A DNA stretch of 64,000 bases from a virus. This document shows, one piece after another, positions 15,245-60,096 of this stretch. The notes beneath the pieces were generated by a model that worked only from the letters and a program-made list of their open reading frames with translations, was not told the origin of the DNA and searched no databases. The translations under genes were made by a program, and so were the position numbers. Location: positions 22,090 through 86,089 of the IMG/VR virus record IMGVR_UViG_3300037086_000458; one strand, written 5' to 3'. Every line of letters begins with the position of its first letter. Within the stretch, counting starts at the first letter, position 1.

Positions 15245-15487
15245 TTACTTCTTTGATTTTAGATTGATATTAATTTTGAACAGGTGCAGGAAGGTATTCC
15301 GTAGACTCCAAGCTACTAAGACTATCCCGAAGCACATTAATATTACCACCAAGGCTGCACAGAATACTATACCGATCCACCTTATGACTACAAACACCAT
15401 AGGCTCATATTTGCAAAATAAAATGATGCCTATGACGGATAATAAGGTTGGTGTAAAATAAAGAAGACCTTTAAGAACGTTTTTCAT
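15245..15487 (-). CDS. Small membrane protein with two transmembrane helices
   Basis: The 80-residue protein has two or three hydrophobic segments (LYFTPTLLSVIGIILFC, then VIRWIGIVFCAALVVIL and MCFGIVLVAW) and a basic C-terminal tail (ININLKSKK). It abuts the helicase start without a gap and overlaps the upstream KptA-like gene by four bases, so it is co-translated. No function can be assigned. It is too far from lysis genes to call a holin on context. Confidence 0.6.
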   Translation of the reverse strand: MKNVLKGLLYFTPTLLSVIGIILFCKYEPMVFVVIRWIGIVFCAALVVILMCFGIVLVAWSLRNTFLHLFKININLKSKK

Positions 15488-16377
15488 AATACCCCCTTGA
15501 TATACTCTTTTTTTACGTCTGTTATGATATATTCACCCTCTTCATACGTTGAAAATTTTAACCCATCCCCATATGCTTTTTTTGCATCGATTACTAATAA
15601 GGATATTTTGTCATCCATATGTACTGCAAATTTTTTTGCGAAGTTTGTTGCATTGTCCTTATTGCAGTAAAGTTTGATATATTTTTTTGTATTGCTAAAA
15701 ATACCTTTATCTTTCATTTTGTTGGCTAAGTTTGTTAGGGTGCCAAAATAGAGCTCATCAGGAGGGCAGAGATACACTTTCAATTTATATTTAATAAGAT
15801 TTTGGTCTTTAAATATTATTTTTCTATGCTTATCTTTAAAAAAGAGCTCTATGATGTGATTTTTGGTTATGTAGGATAAAAATGGCATTCTTTTTTTGAT
15901 GGTTCCACAAAGATCGTTAACCTTAAAATATCCCTCCGTGTCTTTATCTAAACTAGCAATATTGTTACGTAGAAGATGCACTGAGGAAATAAGAGTGGTG
16001 TCTAAATCACTTTGACTTGAAAATAAGGTGGAGGTTGGCTTACCTACGTGTAATATTTCTGTTGCCTGAACCTGAGAGTCAATGTCATATTTTATGTAAT
16101 CGTCATCTTTAAATGAAATTTTCCTTACCAGATCTTTGAAATAAAATTCAATGATGTGATTTCTGTTGATATAATATAAGGCTGGTATTTTGTCTTTTAA
16201 GGTGGATATTATGTAATTTATTGGAAAAAATCCATCAGAGTCCATAGGAAGATAAGAATAAGCTGAATATAAAATTTCTACGGAAGCAGTTAAAGCCATA
16301 TCAAGATCTTTTTGAGATTTATAGAAAGTAGGAGAAGGTCTAACATCAAGCTCGTTAAGGATCATTTTATTCCCCAT
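15484..16377 (-). CDS. KptA/Tpt1-like RNA 2'-phosphotransferase fold with duplicated N-domain
   Basis: The last 95 residues follow the KptA ADP-ribosyltransferase lobe: ELYFGTLTNLANKMKDKG (family LYHGT), YIKLYCN (family YVHLS) and LLVIDAKKAYGDGLKF followed by EYIITDVKKEYIKG. The first 200 residues are two copies of the N-terminal winged-helix part (14-100 and 113-200; compare NRNHIIEFYFKD with TKNHIIELFFKD). The family Arg-His of the N-domain and the His of H-G-T are not conserved, so activity is doubtful. An in-frame ATG at 16365 has GGGGA upstream and may be the true start. Confidence 0.65.
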   Translation of the reverse strand: MGNKMILNELDVRPSPTFYKSQKDLDMALTASVEILYSAYSYLPMDSDGFFPINYIISTLKDKIPALYYINRNHIIEFYFKDLVRKISFKDDDYIKYDIDSQVQATEILHVGKPTSTLFSSQSDLDTTLISSVHLLRNNIASLDKDTEGYFKVNDLCGTIKKRMPFLSYITKNHIIELFFKDKHRKIIFKDQNLIKYKLKVYLCPPDELYFGTLTNLANKMKDKGIFSNTKKYIKLYCNKDNATNFAKKFAVHMDDKISLLVIDAKKAYGDGLKFSTYEEGEYIITDVKKEYIKGVL

Positions 16378-44532: not shown

Positions 44533-47337
44533 ATGTCAATGCTAAGATTTGGGAATGCAGCTTTAGTGACCAGAATAGTCGATCCATTTAAATGGGTCGA
44601 CAAAAAAGTCCCTGCCGGTAGAGTTAAAGTTGCTAGAAATATAATAGCTAAGTATGATCCCTCTAAGTGGCTTTTAAGTCATGTCTCTATTATAGCTTCC
44701 GTTGATGTAGAGCTTGCAGATCAAAAAGATAAAAAAAGCAATTATTTAATTAAGCCAGAATATTCAGCTTTTGTAAATAATAATGGGGATTCTTGGGAGC
44801 GTGAACTTCTTAAAGCTACTTACAAAACTTTTTTAGGTGCTGATAATTATGTAGAGCATGTCCAAATCCCTGAGTTATCAAAAGGGAAAGTAATTGATGT
44901 TGCTTTAAGAGAAGTCCCAATAGGAAAAGATATAGATGGTAAAGATCTTACAACCCTTTATGTTGATATCCTTATAGCCACCAATAAGACTCACACTGAT
45001 TTAATTGAAAAAATTAAAGATGGTACATATAACGCAACTAGCATGGGTTGTGGGATAGCTGGTACAAAGATAATTCTACCTAATGGTTCTATTAAATTTA
45101 TAGAGAATGTTATGGTAGGGGATGAGGTATTAACGCATACCGGTAAATCAAAAAAAGTTACGGCATTATTTAATAAATATGTTTCAGATGTTTCTTTATA
45201 TTCTGTTGATTATATAGGTGCTGAAGAACCCTTAAGATTAACTGGAGAGCACCCTATTTTAATAGCATTTTCTGATTCCGTAAAATGTACCTATCAAAAA
45301 AGTAGGTGTAGGGTTGATAGAAATCAAAGTATGTGTTCTTGGAATAGTAAGGGTGGTAAGAAAAAAATAGAATGTGGTAGAGATAAAAATACCTATGAAT
45401 ATGGTTTTAAATTTGTTCCTATATCTGAGGTATCTAAAGGAGATTATATAGTTAGAGTTTTTCCTACAGATACAACTGATAGCGAAATTTTTACAGAGGA
45501 CATTTGTAGATTGTTGGGTATATATGCTGGGGATGGTTATATAGGTTGGCAATGGGCTACTAATATAGATCATATTACTCAACAAAAAACGTATACAAAA
45601 AGATACCCGGCGTATATTGGTTTTTGTTTAGGGTTAAAAGAAAAGAAGTTACAAGAAGAAGTTTTAGAACTACTTAATAAAATATCACCAAGTGTAACTA
45701 TTACAAGTAAGGAAGTTCCTGAAAGAAATGGTTTTTATATAAATGTTTATGATAAAGATTTATCAAAACTTTTTTATGAAAATTGTGGAGAAGGTGCTTG
45801 GACTAAATCTTTTTCAGATAAAGTGATGGTTTTACCTAAAGATAAGCAGCTAAAAATTATATCAGGTATGTTTGATACTGATGGGTGCTATCAAGAAAAA
45901 ACTAATAGCTTACACTATTCTTCTGCCTCTATAAATTTATTAAATCAGCTACATTTACTTCTTTTAAGAAATGGCATAGGTAATGCAAGGGAAAGGGTAT
46001 TAAGAAAAGATACAGGTAAGAAAAAAGGCCAAGGAAAATATTTTCAAGAAACAGTTACAGTTAATAAAAATTTTTCATTTAAAGTTCCAAGTTGTAAAAA
46101 TAAAAGTTTTGGTATTGAGCCTAAAATTAAAAAAGAAGATTGCTTCTTTTTTAATAACTATTATTTATCCCAAATAAAGACTATAACACATTTAAGATTT
46201 TCAGGTAATATTTATAATTTTTCTGTAGAAGAAGATGAATCTTATTCTGTAGATAATGTAGCTGTTCATAATTGTTTAATTGCTTATAGTCAGTGTTCTC
46301 AATGCGGTAATATAGCTGAAGACGAACCAAAGTTATGTAAACATGTACGTTATTTCAAGAATAACTTTTTCATAGATAAAAATGGTGTAAAAAGGATAAT
46401 AGCCGAGCTTTGTGGAAGAGCTGAAGATCCGGGTAGTAATAAGTTTATTGATGCAAGCTGGGTTAAAAAACCTGCTTTCGAAGGGGCTTTATTAAGAAAT
46501 CTGGTTGAGCCTTCTGAGGATATATCAGAAAAGCTTAATAAAGCGATGTTATTTCCTTCATTTCAACCTCAGCCTGGAATGCTCTTAAGAGCTGCCTCAC
46601 AATCAGCAGCAGCTCTTGTAAATGAGATACAAGCTCAGAATGAAGCTGCCCCTGATCCAGCCTCTTCCCCTGCTCCTAAGGAACCTAAAGAACCTGCTGG
46701 TGATGATACTGATTTTCCTGCAGCACCAGAAGGTGATACTCCTTTGAAACTTGATGAACCTCCTGCAGAAGAAGCACCAGCAGCAGAAGCACCTGTTCCA
46801 GAAGCTCCAGCAGCACCCCAGCCTCAGATCCAAGAGCCTGCCGAGGATGCAACTGTTAAAGAAGTAGAAGATCTCTTTACAAAAAATATCCTTAATAAAA
46901 TAAGAAAAAAACTATTAAAGGATGATGCAGAGTTAAAGACTGCTCCTGGTGATAAACCAATAGTTAGTGAATCCTTAAATGATAATTTTATAAAAACTTC
47001 AGATAGTAAAAATCACCTGATTAAACTAGCTAGAACTACAGGTAATAAAAGATTGATAAATGGTTTTATGATCCTTTCTAATATTGAAAATTGGGAAAGT
47101 TTAAAAAGATATGGGTATGATCGTAGAGATGTGTTAGGAATGCTTCATTTCATAGACAAAAACATGTCTTCTAACCCAGTAGGATCTGATGCAGTTTTAG
47201 CTTTGTCTAAGATTAAAACAGCAAATAGTAGCCCTCAATCTTTTTTTACTGAGATGATTATAGAAATTGGCAGACAGCCCTCAGTAAAAGAAGCTAAAAA
47301 GCTAATTAAGTGGGCTAAAATATTATCAAAATTATAG
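44533..47337 (+). CDS. Prohead protease/scaffold-type protein interrupted by an intein
   Basis: The 934-residue product is a host protein split by an intein at residues 173-580. The joined exteins (526 residues) read SMG then CLIAYSQCSQCGNIAEDE, RIIAELCGRAEDPGSNKF and IDASWVKKPAFEGALLRN, a pattern I associate with prohead core/protease proteins of large phages. The C-terminal extein continues with an Ala/Pro-rich linker and a charged helical end that fits a scaffold part. Splicing would restore the head protein in front of the capsid genes. Confidence 0.72.
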   Translation: MSMLRFGNAALVTRIVDPFKWVDKKVPAGRVKVARNIIAKYDPSKWLLSHVSIIASVDVELADQKDKKSNYLIKPEYSAFVNNNGDSWERELLKATYKTFLGADNYVEHVQIPELSKGKVIDVALREVPIGKDIDGKDLTTLYVDILIATNKTHTDLIEKIKDGTYNATSMGCGIAGTKIILPNGSIKFIENVMVGDEVLTHTGKSKKVTALFNKYVSDVSLYSVDYIGAEEPLRLTGEHPILIAFSDSVKCTYQKSRCRVDRNQSMCSWNSKGGKKKIECGRDKNTYEYGFKFVPISEVSKGDYIVRVFPTDTTDSEIFTEDICRLLGIYAGDGYIGWQWATNIDHITQQKTYTKRYPAYIGFCLGLKEKKLQEEVLELLNKISPSVTITSKEVPERNGFYINVYDKDLSKLFYENCGEGAWTKSFSDKVMVLPKDKQLKIISGMFDTDGCYQEKTNSLHYSSASINLLNQLHLLLLRNGIGNARERVLRKDTGKKKGQGKYFQETVTVNKNFSFKVPSCKNKSFGIEPKIKKEDCFFFNNYYLSQIKTITHLRFSGNIYNFSVEEDESYSVDNVAVHNCLIAYSQCSQCGNIAEDEPKLCKHVRYFKNNFFIDKNGVKRIIAELCGRAEDPGSNKFIDASWVKKPAFEGALLRNLVEPSEDISEKLNKAMLFPSFQPQPGMLLRAASQSAAALVNEIQAQNEAAPDPASSPAPKEPKEPAGDDTDFPAAPEGDTPLKLDEPPAEEAPAAEAPVPEAPAAPQPQIQEPAEDATVKEVEDLFTKNILNKIRKKLLKDDAELKTAPGDKPIVSESLNDNFIKTSDSKNHLIKLARTTGNKRLINGFMILSNIENWESLKRYGYDRRDVLGMLHFIDKNMSSNPVGSDAVLALSKIKTANSSPQSFFTEMIIEIGRQPSVKEAKKLIKWAKILSKL
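45049..46272 (+). mobile_element. Intein with LAGLIDADG homing endonuclease domain
   Basis: The 408-residue insert begins with Cys173 (CGIAGTKI), has block B TGEHPIL, the two endonuclease motifs LLGIYAGDGYIG and ISGMFDTDGCY, and the C-terminal splice motif NVAVHN, immediately followed by the +1 Cys of the C-extein. All residues needed for standard (class 1) protein splicing are present: N-terminal Cys, block B His, penultimate His, terminal Asn and extein Cys. The endonuclease motifs are intact, so homing is possible. Confidence 0.92.
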
Positions 47338-49311: not shown

Positions 49312-50190
49312 ATGTCTGAGATCAGTAACGAAGTCAAACAGCAGCTTATAGGCGATTTCATTAAGACTGCTGCAGGCCGTGCAAAACTTGCTGCTTCCAT
49401 GATTCAGCCTTTACGTCTGAGAAGGGATTATACCTCAGTAGCACGTAAGGCTTTCTTGGTTGAGCAGCTTCCTGATGGCGCACTCCCAATCTATGACAAA
49501 GATCCGAACGTTACGGCCTTTGTTGTTGGTGAAGAGGGCGAGAACATTCTTGCTATTACCAAGCCTCGTCGCGTGATTTTCCCGTTGTTCGAAATTGCAT
49601 CGAACCCTGAAATTCCGTTGACACAGGTTAAAGAAAGACGCTTCGACCTTATTGAAAGAGCACAAGATCTTGCTAAGGCACAGATTCAGGCTGCGGAAGA
49701 TGCCAGAGCTTTTGACGTTATGGATGCAGTGTCAACGGTTGGTTTTGACAACCTTGGTTCTGCCTATGTAAATGCTCAGGTTAATGCTACTGCCCCGATC
49801 AAGCCCGCTGATTTTATTGATGCTTTCGCTCGCATCGAGACCCATGATCTGAGAGTTGCCCGAGTCTTTATGAACGCTTTGGATTATGCTGATGTGCGTA
49901 AATGGGGAAGAGACGTCCTTGACATCGAGAGTCAGGCCAGTCTGTTAAAGACAGGTTTGATGGCTACGGTTTGGGGCGCACAGATCATCGTAACGAGAAA
50001 AGTCAACCCCGGGTATGCATATGTATGTGCAGAGCCGGAGTTCTTCGGCAGAATTCCCGTTAGAACCGAGTTGACCGTACTTTCTGCTGACGATCCAAAA
50101 GCTCGCCGTATCGGTTTTAGCTGCTTCGAAAATCTTGGTATTGGTTGCCATAACCCATTGGCACTTACCAGAATTAAGATAGCTAGATAA
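49312..50190 (+). CDS. Major capsid protein (HK97-fold type)
   Basis: The 292-residue protein has the expected capsid layout: a short N-terminal helix, a P-domain-like middle (KERRFDLIERAQDLAKAQIQ) and A-domain strands (ARVFMNALDYADVRKWG, GAQIIVTRKVNPGYAYVCA). The ribosome binding site AAGGAGG and an almost ideal terminator after the stop fit the most abundant virion protein. Its less AT-rich codons are also typical of highly expressed phage genes. It follows the protease and decoration-like genes. Confidence 0.78.
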   Translation: MSEISNEVKQQLIGDFIKTAAGRAKLAASMIQPLRLRRDYTSVARKAFLVEQLPDGALPIYDKDPNVTAFVVGEEGENILAITKPRRVIFPLFEIASNPEIPLTQVKERRFDLIERAQDLAKAQIQAAEDARAFDVMDAVSTVGFDNLGSAYVNAQVNATAPIKPADFIDAFARIETHDLRVARVFMNALDYADVRKWGRDVLDIESQASLLKTGLMATVWGAQIIVTRKVNPGYAYVCAEPEFFGRIPVRTELTVLSADDPKARRIGFSCFENLGIGCHNPLALTRIKIAR

Positions 50191-50332: not shown

Positions 50333-51570
50333 CCACGGGCCTTGTGCCCGTGGATGAATCGAGTCATTAAATAGTTTAAAATAAACCTTATATTTTGTGT
50401 AAAACAGAGTATATTACTATCAAATGCGCAAAACCTTTAAATATCGTCTATACCCTACAAGACTTCAGATAACCAAGATGAATAATATCCTGGAACTGAC
50501 TCGTTGGGTATACAATGAAACCCTTGCGCTTCGAAAAAACGCCTGGGAGTCTGAAAAGAAATCCATCTCTTTGTATGATACTGCTAATCATCTTCCTATT
50601 TGGAAATCTCAGAGACCAGAACTTCATGATGTACACTCTCAAATTTTGCAGAATGCTCAAATCAGAGTAGACCTTGCTTTTAAAGCTTTCTGGAAAAGAT
50701 GTAAACAAGGTCAGAAACCAGGATTTCCTCGCTTCAAAGGAAAAGGCTGGTATGACTCTTTTACTTATCCTCAGTCTGGCTTCAGACTTCATCCTGACGG
50801 GGTATATCTTTCTAAGATCGACCGTGTCAAGATTGTTCTTCATAGACCGCTCGAAGGGAAAATTAAAACCTGTACCGTTAAAAAGACTCCTACAGGAAAA
50901 TGGTATGTATATTTTTCCTGTATAGTTGAAACTCCTGAGCCTCTTCCAAAAACTGGTAAGATAGTTGGAATAGATTTGGGTCTTATCACTTATGTTCAAT
51001 GTTCTGATGGGACTAAAATTGATAAGCCTCGATTTTTTAATGAAGAGAAAAAATCTCTTGCTCAGGCCAAGCGGCGTGAGAATATAACTTTTAAAGCCAA
51101 ACATAAAAGAGTTTTGGCTATGATCCACGAGAGGATAAAAAACAAGAGAGAGGATTTTTGTCATAAGACTTCCAAGAAACTTGTAGATAAATATGATTTC
51201 ATTGCTCATGAAGACCTTAACGTTAAAAATCTTATTGAGAAAAAAGAAAATAGTAAAAATATCTCTGATGCCGCTTGGTCTACGCTGATCCAATACATGA
51301 CCGCCAAGGCTGAAAGTGCCGGGCGGATCATAGTAGCAGTAGACCCAAGGGGTACATCTCAGAGATGTTCCCAATGTGGGACTGATGTTCCTAAGAGTCT
51401 TGAAGTTCGAGTACATCATTGTCCTCATTGTGGTTTCAAAACTGGCAGAGATTTAAACTCTGCCTTAGAGATACTCAGACTTGGGATGAAGTCTGTTGAG
51501 CGACCATTGCATCGCCGCAAGGCGTGTGCAGCGGTCTGACTCATGGAAGCCACGGGGCTTGTCCCCGTGG
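50333..51570 (+). mobile_element. IS605-family-type tnpB element (no tnpA) with matching palindromic ends
   Basis: The left palindrome CCACGGGC-CTTGT-GCCCGTGG (50333-50353) and right palindrome CCACGGGG-CTTGT-CCCCGTGG (51550-51570) share the same loop and almost the same stem, bracketing a single tnpB gene. IS200/IS605 elements carry such subterminal hairpins. There is no TnpA transposase, so it depends on one in trans or is immobile. TTAC lies 10 bases left of the first hairpin, at 50320-50323, and could be the target-adjacent motif. The exact ends cannot be fixed from one copy. Confidence 0.75.
50424..51539 (+). CDS. tnpB: TnpB RNA-guided nuclease (IS605 OrfB family)
   Basis: The 371-residue protein has the TnpB layout: an N-terminal helix-turn-helix part (MRKTFKYRLYPTRLQ), a RuvC-like domain with D184 in VGIDLGL, E263 in AHEDLNV and D343 in GRDLNSA, and a zinc ribbon (C315, C318, C333, C336). 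All catalytic and zinc positions are intact, so it should be active. TnpB cuts DNA guided by an RNA made from the element's right end, which here would overlap the 3' end of the gene and the hairpin at 51550-51570. Confidence 0.9.
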   Translation: MRKTFKYRLYPTRLQITKMNNILELTRWVYNETLALRKNAWESEKKSISLYDTANHLPIWKSQRPELHDVHSQILQNAQIRVDLAFKAFWKRCKQGQKPGFPRFKGKGWYDSFTYPQSGFRLHPDGVYLSKIDRVKIVLHRPLEGKIKTCTVKKTPTGKWYVYFSCIVETPEPLPKTGKIVGIDLGLITYVQCSDGTKIDKPRFFNEEKKSLAQAKRRENITFKAKHKRVLAMIHERIKNKREDFCHKTSKKLVDKYDFIAHEDLNVKNLIEKKENSKNISDAAWSTLIQYMTAKAESAGRIIVAVDPRGTSQRCSQCGTDVPKSLEVRVHHCPHCGFKTGRDLNSALEILRLGMKSVERPLHRRKACAAV

Positions 51571-51599
51571 AGCATTCACTTTTATGCTATATTAACTAT

Positions 51600-53501
51600 A
51601 TGACAAAACCAGGACCAAAAATCCCAGATATTTCAGATGAGATATTAACTAAGCTCCTTGTAGAGGATAAAAAAACAGATAAGGAAGCTGCAGCTATTTT
51701 AAATGTTAGTAGGAATACTATCGCCAGGTCCCGCAACAGGTTGAATATCCCAATAAAGCCAAAGTGTAAAAAATCAGAGTTCACATCAGAACAGGATGAA
51801 TATTTAAAAAAATTATATATTGAAGAATCAAAAAATGATTATGAAGTGGCAAGTTTGTTACACATAGGAAGAACCCGTTTAATGTGCTGGCGAAGAAAAA
51901 ATAATATTAAATCAAAAACTAATAAAAAAGATCTGCCTAATAATATATGTTCTGAAATCAAATCTAAATTGCAAAATGGAGAAACTTTAACAGTTATAGG
52001 AAAATCTTTAAATGTAAAAGGATATTCTATAGCTCGTTTGTTAAAAAGAAATAATTATGAAACAGGATTTAGTATTAGATCAAGCCCACCAGGTATTCTT
52101 GATTATTCTCTTTCAACTACACAAGAATCTGTATTAATGGGAGAAATGTTTGGGGATGGAGGCCTTGTTAAAGGGGGTCCCGCCACAGCTTATTATCAGT
52201 GTGGGCATAGTATAGAACAGAAAGATTTTGTTAACTGGAAATATGATATTTTTTATCCTTTGAGTTGCAGGAAAAAAGAGAATGCTAACACCATAACTAT
52301 GGCTACATGGTCAAATAAATCTCTTTTTAATTACTGGAAATGGTTTTATCCTACTGGTAGAGGGGATAAGGTTTTATTACCTGAAATGATATCTAAGCTG
52401 GATTGGCTTAGTCTTGCTGTTTGGTTTATGGGTGATGGGGCAAGAGATCGTAAACAAGTAAGATTTTCTGTAGGAAAAGATCAAAATTTAATTCCTGTTG
52501 TAGAATCTATGAATCAAAAATTTGGAAACATGTTTGAAGCTTGCCTGTATGAAAAGGAGTGGTTTTTAAAAATTCGAGATAATGAATCATTTTTTAAAGA
52601 AATATCCCCTTATTTATTACCCTATTTTTCTTATAAGATTCCTTGTGCTACACCTATAATTAATAAACTCAACTCATCAAAAAAATGTCACCAGAAAATA
52701 ATGAAGGAAGAGAAGTTAGAAGCTGATCTTAAAAATTTGTCTTTTGATCCTAAAACTTGCCCTATTGATGAATATATTTTTTCTAAAGAAGATTTTTCTG
52801 ATGAAATCAAAGAATTTTTAAAATCATATGAGTGGCTTAAATCTGTTGGTGTTTCTTCTAAGTGGTGTTTTACAATGCGTTTAAAAGGTCATTTAGCTGG
52901 CGTACAAATACTGAATGAGCCAGCTGCTTATAGTAAATTATTAGACACGGTTAGTATGAAATTAGAATGCCTTGTTCAGAGGGGTTGTACGGTATCATGG
53001 GCACATCAGCATTTAGGGAGTAAGATGTTGATGGCTTCTGTGAATTGGATGGTACAGAATACTGAAAAGAGATTATTTGTTGGATATGCTGATCCGGCTG
53101 CAGCAGAGGTTGGGATAATTTATCAGGCGACAAATTTTAAATATTTAGGGGAAAATTTTGGTGGAAATTGTCTTTACAAGCATCCTACGTATAGAAATGG
53201 AAAAGAGTTTTCGGCCCATTCTTTAAAAAGGACTAGTATTTTTAAGGCTTGGTGCAAACAAAATAGTATCGCTATTGAATCATCTTGGATTAAGTCTAAT
53301 GGATTTAAAGATTTGAAACAGATACCCGTGGACATTAAAAATTCCTGGTATGATTGGGCTAAAAAATTAATATCAGAGTCTGAAAAAATTAAAATTTCTT
53401 TAAAAGGAAAATATGTTTTATTAAGGGGTAGAGATCGACGAGAGCATAAAATTTTAAATTCTTTGTTTAAAGTAAAGACATTCCCTTATCCTAAAAGATA
53501 A
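51600..53501 (+). CDS. Helix-turn-helix / LAGLIDADG endonuclease / Mom-like acyltransferase fusion
   Basis: From the ATG at 51600 (a longer frame starts at 51543 inside the IS hairpin region) the 633 residues divide into three parts. The first 150 hold three tandem HTH units (KEAAAILNVSRNTIARSR, YEVASLLHIGRTRLMCW and VIGKSLNVKGYSIARLL). Residues 175-370 carry two LAGLIDADG motifs (VLMGEMFGDGGL and SLAVWFMGDGAR). The last 220 match the Mom/GNAT pattern (GHLAGVQILNEP, FVGYADPAAAEVGIIYQ). Mom modifies adenine in phage Mu DNA. No intein splice ends are visible, so this looks like a true fusion. Confidence 0.6.
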   Translation: MTKPGPKIPDISDEILTKLLVEDKKTDKEAAAILNVSRNTIARSRNRLNIPIKPKCKKSEFTSEQDEYLKKLYIEESKNDYEVASLLHIGRTRLMCWRRKNNIKSKTNKKDLPNNICSEIKSKLQNGETLTVIGKSLNVKGYSIARLLKRNNYETGFSIRSSPPGILDYSLSTTQESVLMGEMFGDGGLVKGGPATAYYQCGHSIEQKDFVNWKYDIFYPLSCRKKENANTITMATWSNKSLFNYWKWFYPTGRGDKVLLPEMISKLDWLSLAVWFMGDGARDRKQVRFSVGKDQNLIPVVESMNQKFGNMFEACLYEKEWFLKIRDNESFFKEISPYLLPYFSYKIPCATPIINKLNSSKKCHQKIMKEEKLEADLKNLSFDPKTCPIDEYIFSKEDFSDEIKEFLKSYEWLKSVGVSSKWCFTMRLKGHLAGVQILNEPAAYSKLLDTVSMKLECLVQRGCTVSWAHQHLGSKMLMASVNWMVQNTEKRLFVGYADPAAAEVGIIYQATNFKYLGENFGGNCLYKHPTYRNGKEFSAHSLKRTSIFKAWCKQNSIAIESSWIKSNGFKDLKQIPVDIKNSWYDWAKKLISESEKIKISLKGKYVLLRGRDRREHKILNSLFKVKTFPYPKR

Positions 53502-53807: not shown

Positions 53808-54497
53808 ATGCTTAAACCAATAGCCTCTCATATCCGTATTGTTTCCGCAAAAATAAAAGAGAAATCTGAAGATGACCGTATTTATGAGGAAATTAAAGAC
53901 GAATATAATGTCACGGTATTACCTGGAAATAAAATAGAAAACGTAAAGAAGCTGTATGAAGCTTTAAAGAAGCTTCCTACGCAGTTAGTAAGAGATTGCA
54001 AAATAGTGACGATGGATTTTAAGGATTTGGGCCCTTCTAAAGAATTCTACCCTAATCACGGTCGATATCAAAGGGGAATCCTTACTTTAAATGAGAGGAT
54101 ACTTAAAGATACTTCTGTGGAAGTAGATAAACAGACTAATAAGAAAGCTACTAAGTTTGAGCATACTTATTATCACGAGTTAGGTCATGGTTTTGATGAA
54201 AAGAAGCATGAGAGAGATAAATGGTTAAGCCTGAAGGATGATTGGCTTGAATTATCAGGGTGGTCTGAAAGCCCTAAACCAGGATATAAAAGATTAATTA
54301 TTAGAGAAGAGGGTGCTCCAGAATTAAAGGGAGAGTGGTATTATTCTCCTGATGCAAAGTTTTCAAGGTTCTATGGTAAGCGTAATCCGTGGGATGACTT
54401 CGCAGACTCTTTTTCGTATATGGTAGCGGGTTTGAAAAGTTATCTGCCTCATAACAAAAGAAAATATTTTGATGATCTTTTAAAAGAATATTATTAG
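53808..54497 (+). CDS. Zinc metallopeptidase-like protein (HExxH)
   Basis: The 229-residue protein has TYYHELGHGFDEK, an HExxH zinc site, with a third ligand candidate in NPWDDFADSFSYM about 60 residues later, as in compact gluzincins related to the anthrax lethal-factor C-domain type. The N-terminal 115 residues are mixed alpha/beta. It lies just before a holin-like gene. It could be a virion-linked peptidase or part of lysis, but the substrate is unknown. Confidence 0.62.
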   Translation: MLKPIASHIRIVSAKIKEKSEDDRIYEEIKDEYNVTVLPGNKIENVKKLYEALKKLPTQLVRDCKIVTMDFKDLGPSKEFYPNHGRYQRGILTLNERILKDTSVEVDKQTNKKATKFEHTYYHELGHGFDEKKHERDKWLSLKDDWLELSGWSESPKPGYKRLIIREEGAPELKGEWYYSPDAKFSRFYGKRNPWDDFADSFSYMVAGLKSYLPHNKRKYFDDLLKEYY

Positions 54498-54883: not shown

Positions 54884-56266
54884 ATGCCTAACATATCAAA
54901 ATATAAAAGTAAGCCTAACTGGATGTCCGACTGTATGAGAATTAATAAAAGTGAAGGCAAAAAAAATGACCAAAGTTTAGCAATCTGTTTGTCCCAATGG
55001 AGACAGAAGCATAGGGGGAAAGATGCATCGGATTATTCTAAATATCTGGAATTTTCTCCAGGTAATGGTTTAGAATATTATGTACTAAGGATACCCAAAG
55101 ATGCCACTCCTCCTAAAGAAGGGGATTCTTTAAAACTAAATGGAGTTGATGTTATAGTCCATTCTGTAAGTACTCCTGATGATATTCGTAAAGGTAGAGG
55201 TGGACCTGCTGCTGATAGCTTAGAAAAGGCAGGCATAGGTTGGGATGTTAATTGTTTGCCTAAAGGTCATAAATGGCTTAAGCAAGCCGGTTACTTTTCT
55301 TCTTTAATGATTAGAATCGCTGATGATTTTCAGGTGGATATAGATAAAGCTAAAGAAGAGGGTCTTCCTTCAGTTTTTCTCGGAGGATATTGTGAGGATG
55401 GTAATAAATGGCGTGAGGAGATAAAAAAAGAGTTCAAGGAAGACTTTTTATTTATAGATCCTTACGATCCAGATTGGGAAGCAGAAGATAATATTTATAA
55501 TGAATTAGCAGCAATTTTAAATGTCGATCATGTTATATTCTACAGAGGCGGAAGAGGTACGGAAAAAGAAAAAGAATTTATGAAGAATACAGACAGTGAC
55601 TATAAAAGCTTTGGTAATTTAAATGAGTTGAAAGATTACTTAAAATCATTATCATTCCGTGTAGCTAAAAAAGCATGTATTTCTGCTTATTTGAGAAAGA
55701 TAGCTTCTCATATAATAGAAGTTAAAAAAATAAGCAAAGTTGCAAAACTAAATGGCTCTTATGATTATTCAAGTTTGCAGATACAGTTACCCGAAGATTT
55801 ATCAGAATCAGTTGTTACTTGGGGTAAAGATAACATCCCTGAGGAGCTCCTTCATAATAATGAGAAAGAAACTAAAGGGCGAGAGGATGATATTCATGTT
55901 ACATTAATTTTTGGTATTGAAAGCCCTGATTATACTGAATCAGAGGAAATATTAGAGAAAGAAAAGTCTTTTGATATTCGATTAGGCCTTGTTACAGCTT
56001 TTAAAGATGATCCAGATTATGATGTTATTAAAATAGATGTTGAATCGTCAAAACTTCATCAACTTCATTATAAATTAAGAGATAAGATTAAAGTTAATAT
56101 AACGCATCCAAGTTATTTTCCTCATATTACTGTTGCGTATGTTAAAAAGGATTCATCAGATAATTTAATAGGTAATGATTTTTTTAGAGGTAAAAAATTT
56201 ATTGTAAGTAATGTTGTATTTAGTTCTAAAAACGGTAATAAAAAAGTTATAGAAATTGGTAGATAA
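54884..56266 (+). CDS. Nucleoside deoxyribosyltransferase-like domain fused to 2H phosphoesterase
   Basis: The 460-residue protein has a short N-terminal element (MSDCMRINKSEGKKNDQ) and a middle domain at 160-225 (PSVFLGGYCEDGNKWREE, FIDPYDPDWEAEDNI, NELAAILNVDHVIFYRGG) matching the nucleoside deoxyribosyltransferase fold. The C-terminal domain carries two H-x-T motifs, DDIHVTLIFG (H338) and FPHITVAYV (H414), of 2H phosphoesterases. 2H enzymes cleave cyclic or 2'-5' phosphodiesters, and the phage anti-CBASS protein Acb1 is one. The combination suggests nucleotide-signal destruction or salvage. This is inference. Confidence 0.6.
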   Translation: MPNISKYKSKPNWMSDCMRINKSEGKKNDQSLAICLSQWRQKHRGKDASDYSKYLEFSPGNGLEYYVLRIPKDATPPKEGDSLKLNGVDVIVHSVSTPDDIRKGRGGPAADSLEKAGIGWDVNCLPKGHKWLKQAGYFSSLMIRIADDFQVDIDKAKEEGLPSVFLGGYCEDGNKWREEIKKEFKEDFLFIDPYDPDWEAEDNIYNELAAILNVDHVIFYRGGRGTEKEKEFMKNTDSDYKSFGNLNELKDYLKSLSFRVAKKACISAYLRKIASHIIEVKKISKVAKLNGSYDYSSLQIQLPEDLSESVVTWGKDNIPEELLHNNEKETKGREDDIHVTLIFGIESPDYTESEEILEKEKSFDIRLGLVTAFKDDPDYDVIKIDVESSKLHQLHYKLRDKIKVNITHPSYFPHITVAYVKKDSSDNLIGNDFFRGKKFIVSNVVFSSKNGNKKVIEIGR

Positions 56267-57461: not shown

Positions 57462-59459
57462 ATGGATACTCTTACAAGAAATGTTATAGGTAGATATTTT
57501 GAAGATGAACAGGATTCTTTAGACCCTACCATTGATAACGTAGATTTTGTTGAGTATCTTAAAAAGAAGAATCACGAGCCTATCCATGATACTACTGAAG
57601 GAGACGCCACTTATAATCCTTATGATTATAAAGATCCGAGTAGTGAAGTAAAGGATATGGGGGATTCTGAAGATTTTACTAAAGACTATCCCTCATATCC
57701 TGCTTTTGGAAAGAAGAAAGTTTTTGATACTGAAGAACCTTTGGGTTATTGGAGAAAAGTACGTAGGGATGATTCAACAGATGATCCACAAGAACAATCT
57801 CCTGCTATGAGTCTTACTAATAGGTATGCTTCATCTGCTCTAAGGGTTATAAAAGCTTTTAATATCCGTATGGCAACACCTTTTATTAAATTAAAAAAGA
57901 ATCTTGGTGGAGCCACTATTAATGTTGGCTTAGAAAAGTTTGACTTTGAATCAATAAAAAAAATTTACGATGATTTAATTTCAAAAAAAACCGTTAAGAT
58001 ACCGAGTGCTCCAGGGGATATTATCCCTAATCCAATAGTAAGAGAGTTTAAGTTGGAAGATATCGACGATACTGTTATAGGTGTTGGAGGGGTGTCAGAC
58101 AGGGATAGATTAATACATAGTCTTGAGGAGATATTAAAAAAACCTAAAGGTAAATTTATATCAGAAAAGTTTCATCCGTTAAAATATGATGAAATGAAAC
58201 ACGAGTATATTTTAAATCCAGAAAAAGCTTATACTGTCAAAGAATCCTCAGTTAATAATGTGATATCTGAATTTCTTATATCACACATGCCTATTATAAC
58301 CACTCTAAACGAGCTCGGTAATTTAGATCATTGTGATTGTTTAAAGACAGCAGCTACCTTAAATGAGATAGTTTCAAAGCATCACCATAAAAATCTTACG
58401 ACAGGTGTGTTGGAATCAAAAGGTGTAAATGTAGATTGGAAGAAGTTTAACAGTCGTGATGGTATGAAAAAAGGTTTTGTAACCTTTAAAGCAAGAAGTC
58501 AGGACTCTGACAATGAACACACAGTTATATTTCAATTTTTGAAAGATGATGAGGAAGATGTAACTAACCCTGATAAAGCTAAAAGCTATGCAGATCTTCC
58601 GGTAGCTCTATCCTGTTCTTGTGAGTCTTTTCTTTACTACGGAGCCCAATGGTATGCCCTTCAGGGGATGTATATGTACATGCCTGCTTTGAGAAGGTCA
58701 GTATTACCTCCCGTATCAGAATCCAGGATATCTCGAGTTTATCCTGGAAAGGGTTTGAATTTCAGGGTATGTAAACATATTCTGGCATGCTATGAAGTGA
58801 TTAAAACCTGGAAAGTCCAAACAGAATTTAAGAGGATGATAAAGTATACTCCTTTGTCTTTGATTGTAAATCCTCAGCAATGGAAGCAATCTTTCGGAAT
58901 GGATTTTTCGTATAAGAGTATTATGAATTATTTAAGAAAACCTACGCCAATTCCAACAGGTATTAAGAGTTTTTTTAAATATAAAAAAGAGACTACGGAT
59001 CAAAGGGATGCTTTAAAAGCTTTGGATGAATATTTTAAAGATAGGTGGGTTAGAAAATCAGTATCTGAAAAATCCCAGGTATTGAAAGCATATATAAATC
59101 ATCCGGAGGAAGTGTTTTATTTTTTGATGAGAGAAGCTATAAGCAAAAACGGAAACATAAATGACAGGTTAGCGAAAGAGGGTATTATACTTATAGCTAA
59201 AACTATAGATCCTAATTATGCCCGGGTCTTGGTAAGCGGCGATTTTGATGCTGTTCCTGGTAAAGTTTCTATAGAGAAGAGTGAAGAAAAAGGAGCCCCT
59301 AAGGATAAAGTTAAAGGGATGCCCCTAATTAAGCCATATAAGGATGAAATTAAACCAGGATCTGAAAGATTTGAAACAAAAAAGCCAGGAAAAGAAGAAG
59401 GTAGGTTTGAAGGTCCTAAGCAAGTTAAGTCCCCATTAAGGAAAAAATTGGATGAATAA
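57462..59459 (+). CDS. Large virion-region protein with SWIM-like cysteine/histidine motif
   Basis: The 665-residue protein carries ALSCSCESFLYYG and, about 50 residues on, FRVCKHILACYEV, giving a C-x-C...C-x-H arrangement as in SWIM zinc modules. The N-terminal 110 residues are acidic and Pro-rich, and the C-terminal 60 are Lys/Pro-rich. SWIM modules bind DNA or proteins. The protein is probably structural or DNA-associated. The stop overlaps the next gene by eight bases. Confidence 0.55.
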   Translation: MDTLTRNVIGRYFEDEQDSLDPTIDNVDFVEYLKKKNHEPIHDTTEGDATYNPYDYKDPSSEVKDMGDSEDFTKDYPSYPAFGKKKVFDTEEPLGYWRKVRRDDSTDDPQEQSPAMSLTNRYASSALRVIKAFNIRMATPFIKLKKNLGGATINVGLEKFDFESIKKIYDDLISKKTVKIPSAPGDIIPNPIVREFKLEDIDDTVIGVGGVSDRDRLIHSLEEILKKPKGKFISEKFHPLKYDEMKHEYILNPEKAYTVKESSVNNVISEFLISHMPIITTLNELGNLDHCDCLKTAATLNEIVSKHHHKNLTTGVLESKGVNVDWKKFNSRDGMKKGFVTFKARSQDSDNEHTVIFQFLKDDEEDVTNPDKAKSYADLPVALSCSCESFLYYGAQWYALQGMYMYMPALRRSVLPPVSESRISRVYPGKGLNFRVCKHILACYEVIKTWKVQTEFKRMIKYTPLSLIVNPQQWKQSFGMDFSYKSIMNYLRKPTPIPTGIKSFFKYKKETTDQRDALKALDEYFKDRWVRKSVSEKSQVLKAYINHPEEVFYFLMREAISKNGNINDRLAKEGIILIAKTIDPNYARVLVSGDFDAVPGKVSIEKSEEKGAPKDKVKGMPLIKPYKDEIKPGSERFETKKPGKEEGRFEGPKQVKSPLRKKLDE

Positions 59460-60096
59460 ATTAATCATTTTAATAATAGTTTTTAGTATCCCATTTATAA
59501 TCGATGCAAAAACAGGGGTATCAGTAGATATTAATGTAACTGCGCCTGTGCCGGTACCACCTTTTTTTCCTCCTCTTCTTCCTCCTCCCCCTCCTGTTTT
59601 TGTACCAGTTGAACCGCCATTACAGCCTGATGGATATGTTGTAGCAACTGATAATGATGGGGATATGGATAGGGATGATTTAATAATTTATGATAGAAAT
59701 CATGTAGGTTTTTGGTTTTTGTTACCATCGGGTGATTATGTGTTTCGTTGTAGGGCTATGAGATATGATAGAGGAGCTGGTGAATGGTATTATGGGCCAT
59801 GGTATGAAAGGCACAACATAGACTATCATAGATATCATATGATACATTCTCATCCTGAGCATTTTAGGGATTATATGCATAGGAGATATCCAAGATATTA
59901 TGAGAATCATCTTAGACATAATAGAGATTCAAATCAACAGAAAAGACATGAGGACCGGCATTTAGACCATAATAAAAATAATCACGAGGATCGGCATTTA
60001 GATCATAACAGAAATAATCATGAGGATCATCATTTAGATCATAATAAAAACAATCATGATCCTGAACAGGCTCGTGATCACCATGATCATCACTGA
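59452..60096 (+). CDS. Secreted His-rich repeat protein
   Basis: The 214-residue protein starts with a signal peptide (NKLIILIIVFSIPFIIDAK), then a polyproline stretch (PPFFPPLLPPPPP), a short ordered domain (DGYVVATDNDGDMDRDDL, WFLLPSGDYVFRC), and a His-rich end with three tandem 12-residue units of the type HEDRHLDHNKNN. The His repeats suggest metal binding. It overlaps the preceding gene by eight bases. No family is recognised. Export to the periplasm or surface is predicted. Confidence 0.55.
   Translation: MNKLIILIIVFSIPFIIDAKTGVSVDINVTAPVPVPPFFPPLLPPPPPVFVPVEPPLQPDGYVVATDNDGDMDRDDLIIYDRNHVGFWFLLPSGDYVFRCRAMRYDRGAGEWYYGPWYERHNIDYHRYHMIHSHPEHFRDYMHRRYPRYYENHLRHNRDSNQQKRHEDRHLDHNKNNHEDRHLDHNRNNHEDHHLDHNKNNHDPEQARDHHDHH

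What the first reader, a model, noticed from the sequence alone, without database searches (positions are those of the whole stretch)
54884..56266. Nucleoside deoxyribosyltransferase-like domain fused to a 2H phosphoesterase
Seen: one 460-residue protein with FLGGYCEDGNKW...NELAAILNVDHVIFY (residues 164-220) and two H-x-T motifs (H338, H414) in a C-terminal 2H domain. Known: 2H enzymes cut cyclic or 2'-5' phosphodiesters, Acb1 of phage T4 destroys CBASS signals this way, and deoxyribosyltransferase-fold enzymes cut nucleosidic bonds and are related to TIR-type NAD-cleaving domains. Inference: the fusion could dismantle a host nucleotide alarm signal in two steps. I know no described protein with this exact order.
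Basis: partly seen in the sequence, partly recalled or inferred. Interest (0 to 1): 0.78.

Follow-up and report, generated by a model that had tools for sequence, protein, structure and literature searches.

The report
Two-enzyme fusion in huge-phage capsid cluster
A very large bacterial virus carries, among its capsid genes, one protein that joins two nucleotide-cutting enzymes, one that breaks phosphate links and one that looks built to clip bases off sugars; related viruses keep the pair together in either order, so it is probably a tool against the host's nucleotide alarm signals or for NAD and RNA repair.

Summary
ORF 54884-56266 (460 aa) has an NDT-fold domain (about residues 148-262) and a C-terminal 2H phosphoesterase (288-460) with HxT at 338-340 and 414-416. 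The window is part of an 86 kb fragment of a huge phage whose capsid protein is 40% identical to that of Bacillus phage G.

The fusion is real and conserved: nine more phage contigs (33-93% identity) carry it at the same place downstream of the capsid gene, with dN/dS about 0.15 in the one close pair measured. Another contig has the reversed order, 2H-NDT, inside an 839-aa protein with an ART-PolyVal domain. Both domains also occur alone in phage structural clusters.

'Deoxyribosyltransferase' needs correction. The nucleophile Glu (E229) is invariant, but the Tyr tied to 2'-deoxy specificity is an invariant Phe (F165), as in MilB and many TIR NADases.

Best reading: a small polyvalent-type effector that degrades host nucleotide or NAD-derived signals. 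Main rival: NAD-dependent RNA repair, because the same window encodes a KptA-like protein. No activity or virion location has been shown. That phage 2H domains counter nucleotide signals is a published prediction; the NDT/2H pairing appears new.

The parts
54884..56266 (+). The finding: 460-aa ORF, [N-terminal module]-[unmatched stretch]-[NDT-like]-[amphipathic linker]-[2H]
   Evidence: synteny; dN/dS about 0.15 in relatives L093/L094
54884..55024 (+). N-terminal 47-aa Cys-containing module, fused here and in L012/L091, a separate small ORF directly upstream in seven relatives
   Evidence: phmmer E 1e-31 to 1e-6
55025..55324 (+). Stretch of residues 48-147 without detectable relatives outside the near-identical contig; mostly low confidence in the model
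55325..55669 (+). NDT-like (DrHyd/NDT/TIR-class) domain, residues 148-262; predicted N-glycosidase
   Evidence: PF15891 in all 11 members; AF2 pTM 0.81; Foldseek 7o62, DNPH1, MilB, BcmB and viral NDTs
55376..55378 (+). F165, aligned to the catalytic Tyr7 of L. leichmannii NDT; Phe in all members
55502..55504 (+). E207, aligned to Asp72 of NDT; invariant
55568..55570 (+). E229, aligned to the nucleophile Glu98 of NDT; invariant
55676..55723 (+). Amphipathic element CISAYLRKIASHIIEV between the two domains; similar S.(L/I)R(R/K).A elements recur in relatives; role unknown
   Evidence: suggestive only
55745..56263 (+). 2H phosphoesterase domain, residues 288-460
   Evidence: PF13563 and PF23474 above cut-off; phrog_755 E 1.5e-12; Acb1 9q2g E 4e-7 with profile; Foldseek probability 1.00
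55877..55903 (+). GREDDIHVT: first HxT (H338, T340)
   Evidence: G, R, E, H and T in 34 of 34 sequences
56123..56131 (+). HIT: second HxT (H414, T416)
   Evidence: 34 of 34 sequences
49312..50190 (+). Major capsid protein; marks the virion gene block and the phage-G relationship
   Evidence: phrog_2522 E 3e-52; phage G 40%, LR745208 74%
53808..54497 (+). Conserved upstream neighbour with an HExxH-like HELGH motif (putative metallopeptidase, read from sequence)
   Evidence: synteny; motif; no confident Pfam hit
57462..59459 (+). Conserved downstream neighbour holding a copy of part of the spacer module that relatives carry between NDT and 2H
   Evidence: phmmer E 2e-4; synteny
15484..16377 (-). 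KptA/Tpt1-like protein (NAD-dependent RNA 2'-phosphotransferase family), relevant to the RNA-repair rival
   Evidence: PF01885 27.4 bits, cut-off 26; weak matches also in G004 and G007

Best explanation
A bifunctional effector encoded in the virion gene block of phage-G-like huge phages. The 2H domain opens cyclic or 2'-5' phosphodiester bonds, as Acb1 and LigT-type enzymes do. The NDT-like domain cleaves an N-glycosidic bond of a substrate that keeps its 2'-OH (a ribonucleotide, or NAD- or ADP-ribose-derived), using E229 as nucleophile. The protein most likely enters the cell with the genome as a packaged cargo protein and removes host nucleotide or NAD-derived immune signals. The two active sites probably act independently on related signals rather than as an obligate relay. 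Shown: sequence, predicted folds, conserved catalytic residues, purifying selection, synteny, and pairing in both orders. Inferred: activities, substrates, packaging, anti-defence role.
For: The fusion is conserved at one syntenic virion locus in the window and nine diverged contigs. Catalytic motifs are invariant in both domains, with dN/dS 0.14-0.16 for each domain. The pair recurs in reversed order in L139, beside an ART-PolyVal domain. 2H also sits in the multi-effector protein gp321 of Tunturi_5, with SprT-like, GNAT and three ART-PolyVal matches, between head-tail and tail genes. Solo NDT genes lie in tail clusters (L126, L140); in L140 the solo NDT shares a leader with three consecutive neighbours, and that leader recurs widely in the related phage genome G002. 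The nearest PDB hit of the 2H profile is phage Acb1, with the shared signature PxYxPHxTxxY. Phe at position 165 in place of Tyr matches MilB F17, whose F17Y mutant switches from CMP to dCMP (PMC4081090), and TIR NADases (PMC11204291).
Against: No substrate, activity or virion location was measured. 2H domains also serve RNA repair, and a KptA-like gene is in the same window. No known packaging signal was identified; the internal amphipathic element is only suggestive. Only the nearest clade has the fusion: nine of 41 loci with enough DNA downstream of this type of capsid gene. The NDT assignment is fold-level: profile-profile comparison with classical NDTs was not significant and Foldseek E-values against PDB are 0.009 to 0.1.
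Confidence: 0.5

Rival explanations
1. NAD-dependent RNA repair. The 2H domain opens 2',3'-cyclic phosphates on RNAs cut by host anticodon nucleases, KptA removes the 2'-phosphate with NAD, giving ADP-ribose 1'',2''-cyclic phosphate, and 2H plus the NDT-like domain dispose of that by-product.
For: The same window encodes a KptA-like protein above the Pfam cut-off (15484-16377 minus); weak KptA matches also occur in two fusion phages, and G002 with a solo NDT has a strong KptA and RNA ligase. Published models link 2H, KptA and ADP-ribose derivatives (PMC9503650). Bacterial and archaeal LigT/CPDases rank top in Foldseek.
Against: No RNA ligase passes the cut-off in the window record or the five fusion-phage records searched (all are fragments). 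No macro domain in any. KptA is not adjacent to the fusion. Repair genes are not expected in a capsid gene block. PMC5512222 reports that polyvalent-type 2H domains were never seen with RNA ligases.
Confidence: 0.25
2. Nucleotide-pool enzyme: the NDT-like domain hydrolyses or exchanges bases of nucleotides for phage DNA synthesis or base modification, and the 2H domain is an unrelated fused activity.
For: Phage NDT-family enzymes such as DmtZ do this (PMC12884076); nearest viral folds include NDTs and a CMP/hydroxymethyl-CMP hydrolase.
Against: The Tyr typical of deoxy-specific NDTs is Phe here in all members. The gene sits among capsid genes, not in a nucleotide-metabolism cluster. A 2H partner has no obvious place in base salvage.
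Confidence: 0.12
3. Non-catalytic virion or assembly protein that reuses old enzyme folds.
For: Conserved within the capsid module with structural neighbours.
Against: Catalytic residues are invariant across members as low as 33% identical.
Confidence: 0.08

Closest known systems
Acb1 (anti-CBASS 2H nuclease of T4, FBB1, BCSR5; PDB 7t26, 9q2g)
   Same: 2H fold, HxT/HxT tetrad, PxYxPHxTxxY signature, phage origin; best profile hit in PDB
   Different: Acb1 is a small single-domain protein; base-contact residues such as E141 and the C-terminal lid were not shown here; this one is fused to an NDT-like domain
Polyvalent proteins of phages with 2H domains (PMC5512222), e.g. Tunturi_5 gp321 by domain content
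   Same: Several enzymatic domains on one chain in the virion gene region; the same kind of 2H domain; a reversed 2H-NDT pair sits in an ART-PolyVal protein (L139)
   Different: This protein is small and has no ART, MuF or portal domain; a NDT-like partner was not found described in the papers read
NDT superfamily: nucleoside 2'-deoxyribosyltransferase, DNPH1, MilB/BcmB (PDB 1f8x, 7o62, 4jem, 4jen) and Pfam PF15891
   Same: Fold, position of the nucleophile Glu
   Different: Catalytic Tyr is Phe (as in MilB), Asp72 is Glu, Asp92 is missing; fused to 2H
RyDEP phage glycosidase for 2'/3'cADPR (PMC13232231)
   Same: Predicted role as a phage glycosidase against nucleotide signals
   Different: Unrelated RyR fold; RyDEP activity is shown, this one is not
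KptA/2H RNA end-repair network (PMC9503650)
   Same: A KptA-like gene and a 2H domain in one phage
   Different: No RNA ligase above cut-off found in the fusion-phage records; the genes are not linked

Membership tests
2H phosphoesterase superfamily | Two H-x-T/S motifs | tested here: met
   H338-T340 and H414-T416, 34 of 34 sequences
2H phosphoesterase superfamily | Two-lobed 2H fold | tested here: met
   AF2 and Foldseek probability 1.00 to LigT, CPDase, Acb1
Acb1 | Scores above the Pfam Acb1 cut-off | tested here: met
   28.3 bits against 27; but 2_5_RNA_ligase2 scores higher and some relatives fall below
Acb1 | Base-stacking aromatics, adenine contact E141 and C-terminal lid | tested here: inconclusive
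   The position six before the second His, which I take as F107 of T4 Acb1, is His in P0001 and mostly Tyr or Phe in relatives; the others were not mapped
Acb1 | Cleaves cyclic di/trinucleotides | not testable with these tools
   Needs a biochemical assay
Nucleoside deoxyribosyltransferase (NDT) family | NDT/DrHyd-type Rossmann-like fold | tested here: met
Nucleoside deoxyribosyltransferase (NDT) family | Nucleophile Glu (Glu98 of 1f8x) | tested here: met
   E229 in the same column in three MAFFT modes, invariant
Nucleoside deoxyribosyltransferase (NDT) family | Catalytic Tyr7 linked to 2'-deoxy specificity, and Asp92 | tested here: not met
   Phe in all members; Asp92 falls in a gap. Therefore not filed as a deoxyribosyltransferase
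Pfam PF15891 Nuc_deoxyri_tr2 | Score above curated cut-off | tested here: inconclusive
   This protein 23.9 bits against 30; relative L091 31.6 bits
Polyvalent proteins | Two or more effector-type enzymatic domains on one chain | tested here: met
   By fold and sequence only
Polyvalent proteins | Encoded in the virion gene block | tested here: met
Polyvalent proteins | ART-PolyVal, MuF or portal type domain in the same chain | tested here: not met
   None in P0001; no ART-PolyVal in the window record; present in the related L139 protein. So described as polyvalent-type, not filed as a member
Polyvalent proteins | Present in the virion and injected | not testable with these tools
   Needs virion proteomics

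The most novel reading that the evidence does not exclude
A virion-delivered, two-activity signal eraser: the 2H domain linearises a cyclic nucleotide or ADP-ribose alarm and the NDT-like glycosidase then strips the base, so that the alarm cannot be re-formed; a class of phage counter-defence not yet described.
Probability: 0.2. Interest if true: 0.85.

Novelty: new variant of a known kind. Interest (0 to 1): 0.6.

Why it matters
If right, huge phages carry into the cell, or make next to their capsid, one protein combining a phosphodiesterase with a base-cleaving glycosidase. Degradation of Thoeris cADPR isomers by a phage glycosidase was reported only in 2026 for an unrelated fold (PMC13232231). 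A second, NDT-type glycosidase family paired with an Acb1-like enzyme would widen the known ways phages switch off nucleotide signalling and would mark a conserved cargo locus next to the capsid gene where further effectors could be looked for. The repeated pairing, in both orders, makes the functional link testable.

Tried and rejected
Assembly artefact or chance fusion: rejected; a second contig with the same sequence and nine diverged relatives carry it.

True deoxyribosyltransferase: lowered, since the catalytic Tyr is absent.

Fixed two-step relay: not favoured, because of order reversal, variable spacer and solo domains.

Cellular origin of the NDT-like domain: a pattern scan of 84,980 species genomes gave no relative; plasmids gave none. 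These searches reach close relatives only.

Profile-profile comparison with classical NDTs: not significant, so residue equivalence rests on MAFFT alignments plus secondary structure.

Leader-like element as packaging signal in the window phage: a matrix scan and a genome search gave few hits beyond the seed sequences; left open.

Part of the solo 2H proteins start with MKTWNKFLDE-like leaders that recall the T4 capsid targeting sequence as I remember it; the T4 sequence was not checked here and about half of the solo proteins lack such a leader.

PADLOC: no hit.

Pfam on genes at the same place in phages lacking the fusion: no families.

Full report
What is there. The ORF at 54884-56266 is intact and encodes 460 residues. 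The window is 64 kb of an 86,089-base virus record. Its major capsid protein (49312-50190) is 40% identical to gp27 of Bacillus phage G, 50% to Tunturi_5 and 74% to a 485 kb uncultured huge phage. Terminase, portal and capsid genes were confirmed with PHROGs, with a weak match to a head maturation protease in the 934-aa ORF. The finding lies 4.7 kb downstream of the capsid gene.

The 2H domain. Residues 288-460 match 2_5_RNA_ligase2 and Acb1 above curated cut-offs, with HxT motifs at H338 and H414 that never vary in 34 aligned sequences. AlphaFold2 gives pLDDT of about 95 over most of it, and Foldseek finds LigT, CPDases, Acb1 and rotavirus/coronavirus 2',5'-PDEs. With a 19-sequence profile the best PDB sequence is Acb1 of phage BCSR5 at E 4e-7. 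The stretch THPSYFPHITVAY resembles DYPDYRPHITLSY of Acb1 7t26. Sequence alone does not separate cyclic-oligonucleotide cleavage from 2',3'-cyclic phosphate processing.

The NDT-like domain. PF15891 matches this protein below its cut-off but matches all eleven members of the first domain alignment, one above the cut-off. Alone it folds to pLDDT 86, pTM 0.81. The first PDB match is a 2'-deoxyribosyltransferase (7o62, TM 0.62 by query length, probability 1.00), followed among others by DNPH1, MilB and TIR domains, all with modest E-values; the named viral matches are mostly annotated NDTs or related hydrolases. Three MAFFT modes with the sequences of 1f8x, 1s2d and 6evs agree: Tyr7 to F165, Asp72 to E207, Glu98 to E229, Asp92 in a gap; the 1f8x sequence was checked against the PDB. 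In MilB the residue is Phe17 and F17Y switches the enzyme from CMP to dCMP (PMC4081090); TIR NADases usually have Phe or Ala there (PMC11204291). So the domain keeps the nucleophile and loses the feature tied to deoxy substrates. This substrate inference has not been tested. An Erwinia jumbo-phage protein with a good PF15891 match also appears to have Phe at this place, so it may be a trait of that wider family.

Conservation. Nine other contigs carry NDT-2H (L091-L099), 33-93% pairwise identical. The order portal, protease, capsid, putative metallopeptidase, small ORF, NDT-2H, two further conserved genes is kept in most of them. In most relatives a spacer module of about 100 aa lies between the two domains; in L092 (L023) it lies before the NDT, and part of a copy sits in the window gene 57462-59459. 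The N-terminal 47 residues are a separate ORF in seven relatives. In the one close pair measured dN/dS is 0.16 for the NDT part and 0.14 for the 2H part. Among 41 capsid loci with more than 4.5 kb downstream, nine carry it, one of them the contig near-identical to the window; all belong to the nearest clade.

Pairing elsewhere. L139, a 90 kb contig with a related capsid gene about 6 kb upstream, encodes an 839-aa protein in the order 2H, NDT, then ART-PolyVal. Whether this is a second fusion or a rearrangement of the first was not tested with trees. Tunturi_5 gp321 combines an SprT-like domain, 2H, GNAT and ART-PolyVal between head-tail and tail genes. About 26 standalone 2H proteins were found; one (L004) lies between terminase-like and portal-like genes (by reading). 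Solo NDT genes lie in tail clusters of L126 and L140. In L140 four consecutive genes, the solo NDT among them, share the leader MKHLAxIQxEFLKxA, and the 329.8 kb record G002 has 15 matches to it with E below 1e-3, two of them seeds. This looks like a sorting or packaging leader, as T4 internal proteins share only a capsid targeting sequence (PMC3012670), but its function is unknown and it was not seen in the window phage.

Mechanism. I commit to a small polyvalent-type effector with two independent nucleotide-degrading activities, most likely aimed at host nucleotide or NAD-derived signals (0.5). Order swapping, a variable spacer and solo copies argue against a fixed relay between the two sites. 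The main rival is NAD-dependent RNA repair (0.25): the window itself has a KptA-like protein, although no RNA ligase above cut-off was found in the records of the window and five fusion phages, which are fragments, and no macro domain.

Novelty. 2H domains in polyvalent and jumbo-phage proteins as counters to nucleotide signals were predicted in 2017 and 2021 (PMC5512222, PMC7824862). The 2022 survey of viral NAD/ADP-ribose systems reports only ARC-type DrHyd domains in viruses within its scope (PMC9503650). No record among 50,697 GenBank phages matches the NDT-like half at a meaningful E-value, and paper searches found no such fusion. These libraries are not complete.

Noticed in passing
15484-16377 (minus): KptA/Tpt1-like protein; by eye the N-terminal part is duplicated before the ART-type C-terminus. 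Weak matches in two other fusion phages.
   Followed up: partly
51543-53501: Mom-like DNA modification protein preceded by helix-turn-helix and LAGLIDADG endonuclease parts in one ORF; matches to this ORF recur downstream of the capsid gene in many related contigs.
   Followed up: no
44533-47337: Putative head maturation protease ORF that appears interrupted by an intein (reads CGIAGTKI... to ...VHNC).
   Followed up: no
50424-51539: Transposase of OrfB/TnpB type between capsid and Mom-like genes (by sequence reading).
   Followed up: no
59452-60096: Protein with a signal-like N-terminus and a His-rich repetitive C-terminus (DHNKNNHED repeats).
   Followed up: no
L140:6417-8363 and record G002: Shared N-terminal leader MKHLAxIQxEFLKxA on four consecutive genes and, with E below 1e-3, at 15 places of a 330 kb phage; a possible packaging or sorting signal.
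   Followed up: partly
L161:2462-4879 (Erwinia phage pEa_SNUABM_54, QXO10977.1): 805-aa hypothetical protein starting with a PF15891 domain above cut-off, also with Phe at the catalytic Tyr position by eye; rest unidentified.
   Followed up: partly
L130:2365-6498: 1378-aa multi-domain phage protein ending in a 2H domain, with a GNAT domain.
   Followed up: no
54884-55024: Conserved small Cys-containing module (CMxxxxxxEGKxxDQSxAxCLxxWR), usually its own ORF; function unknown.
   Followed up: no
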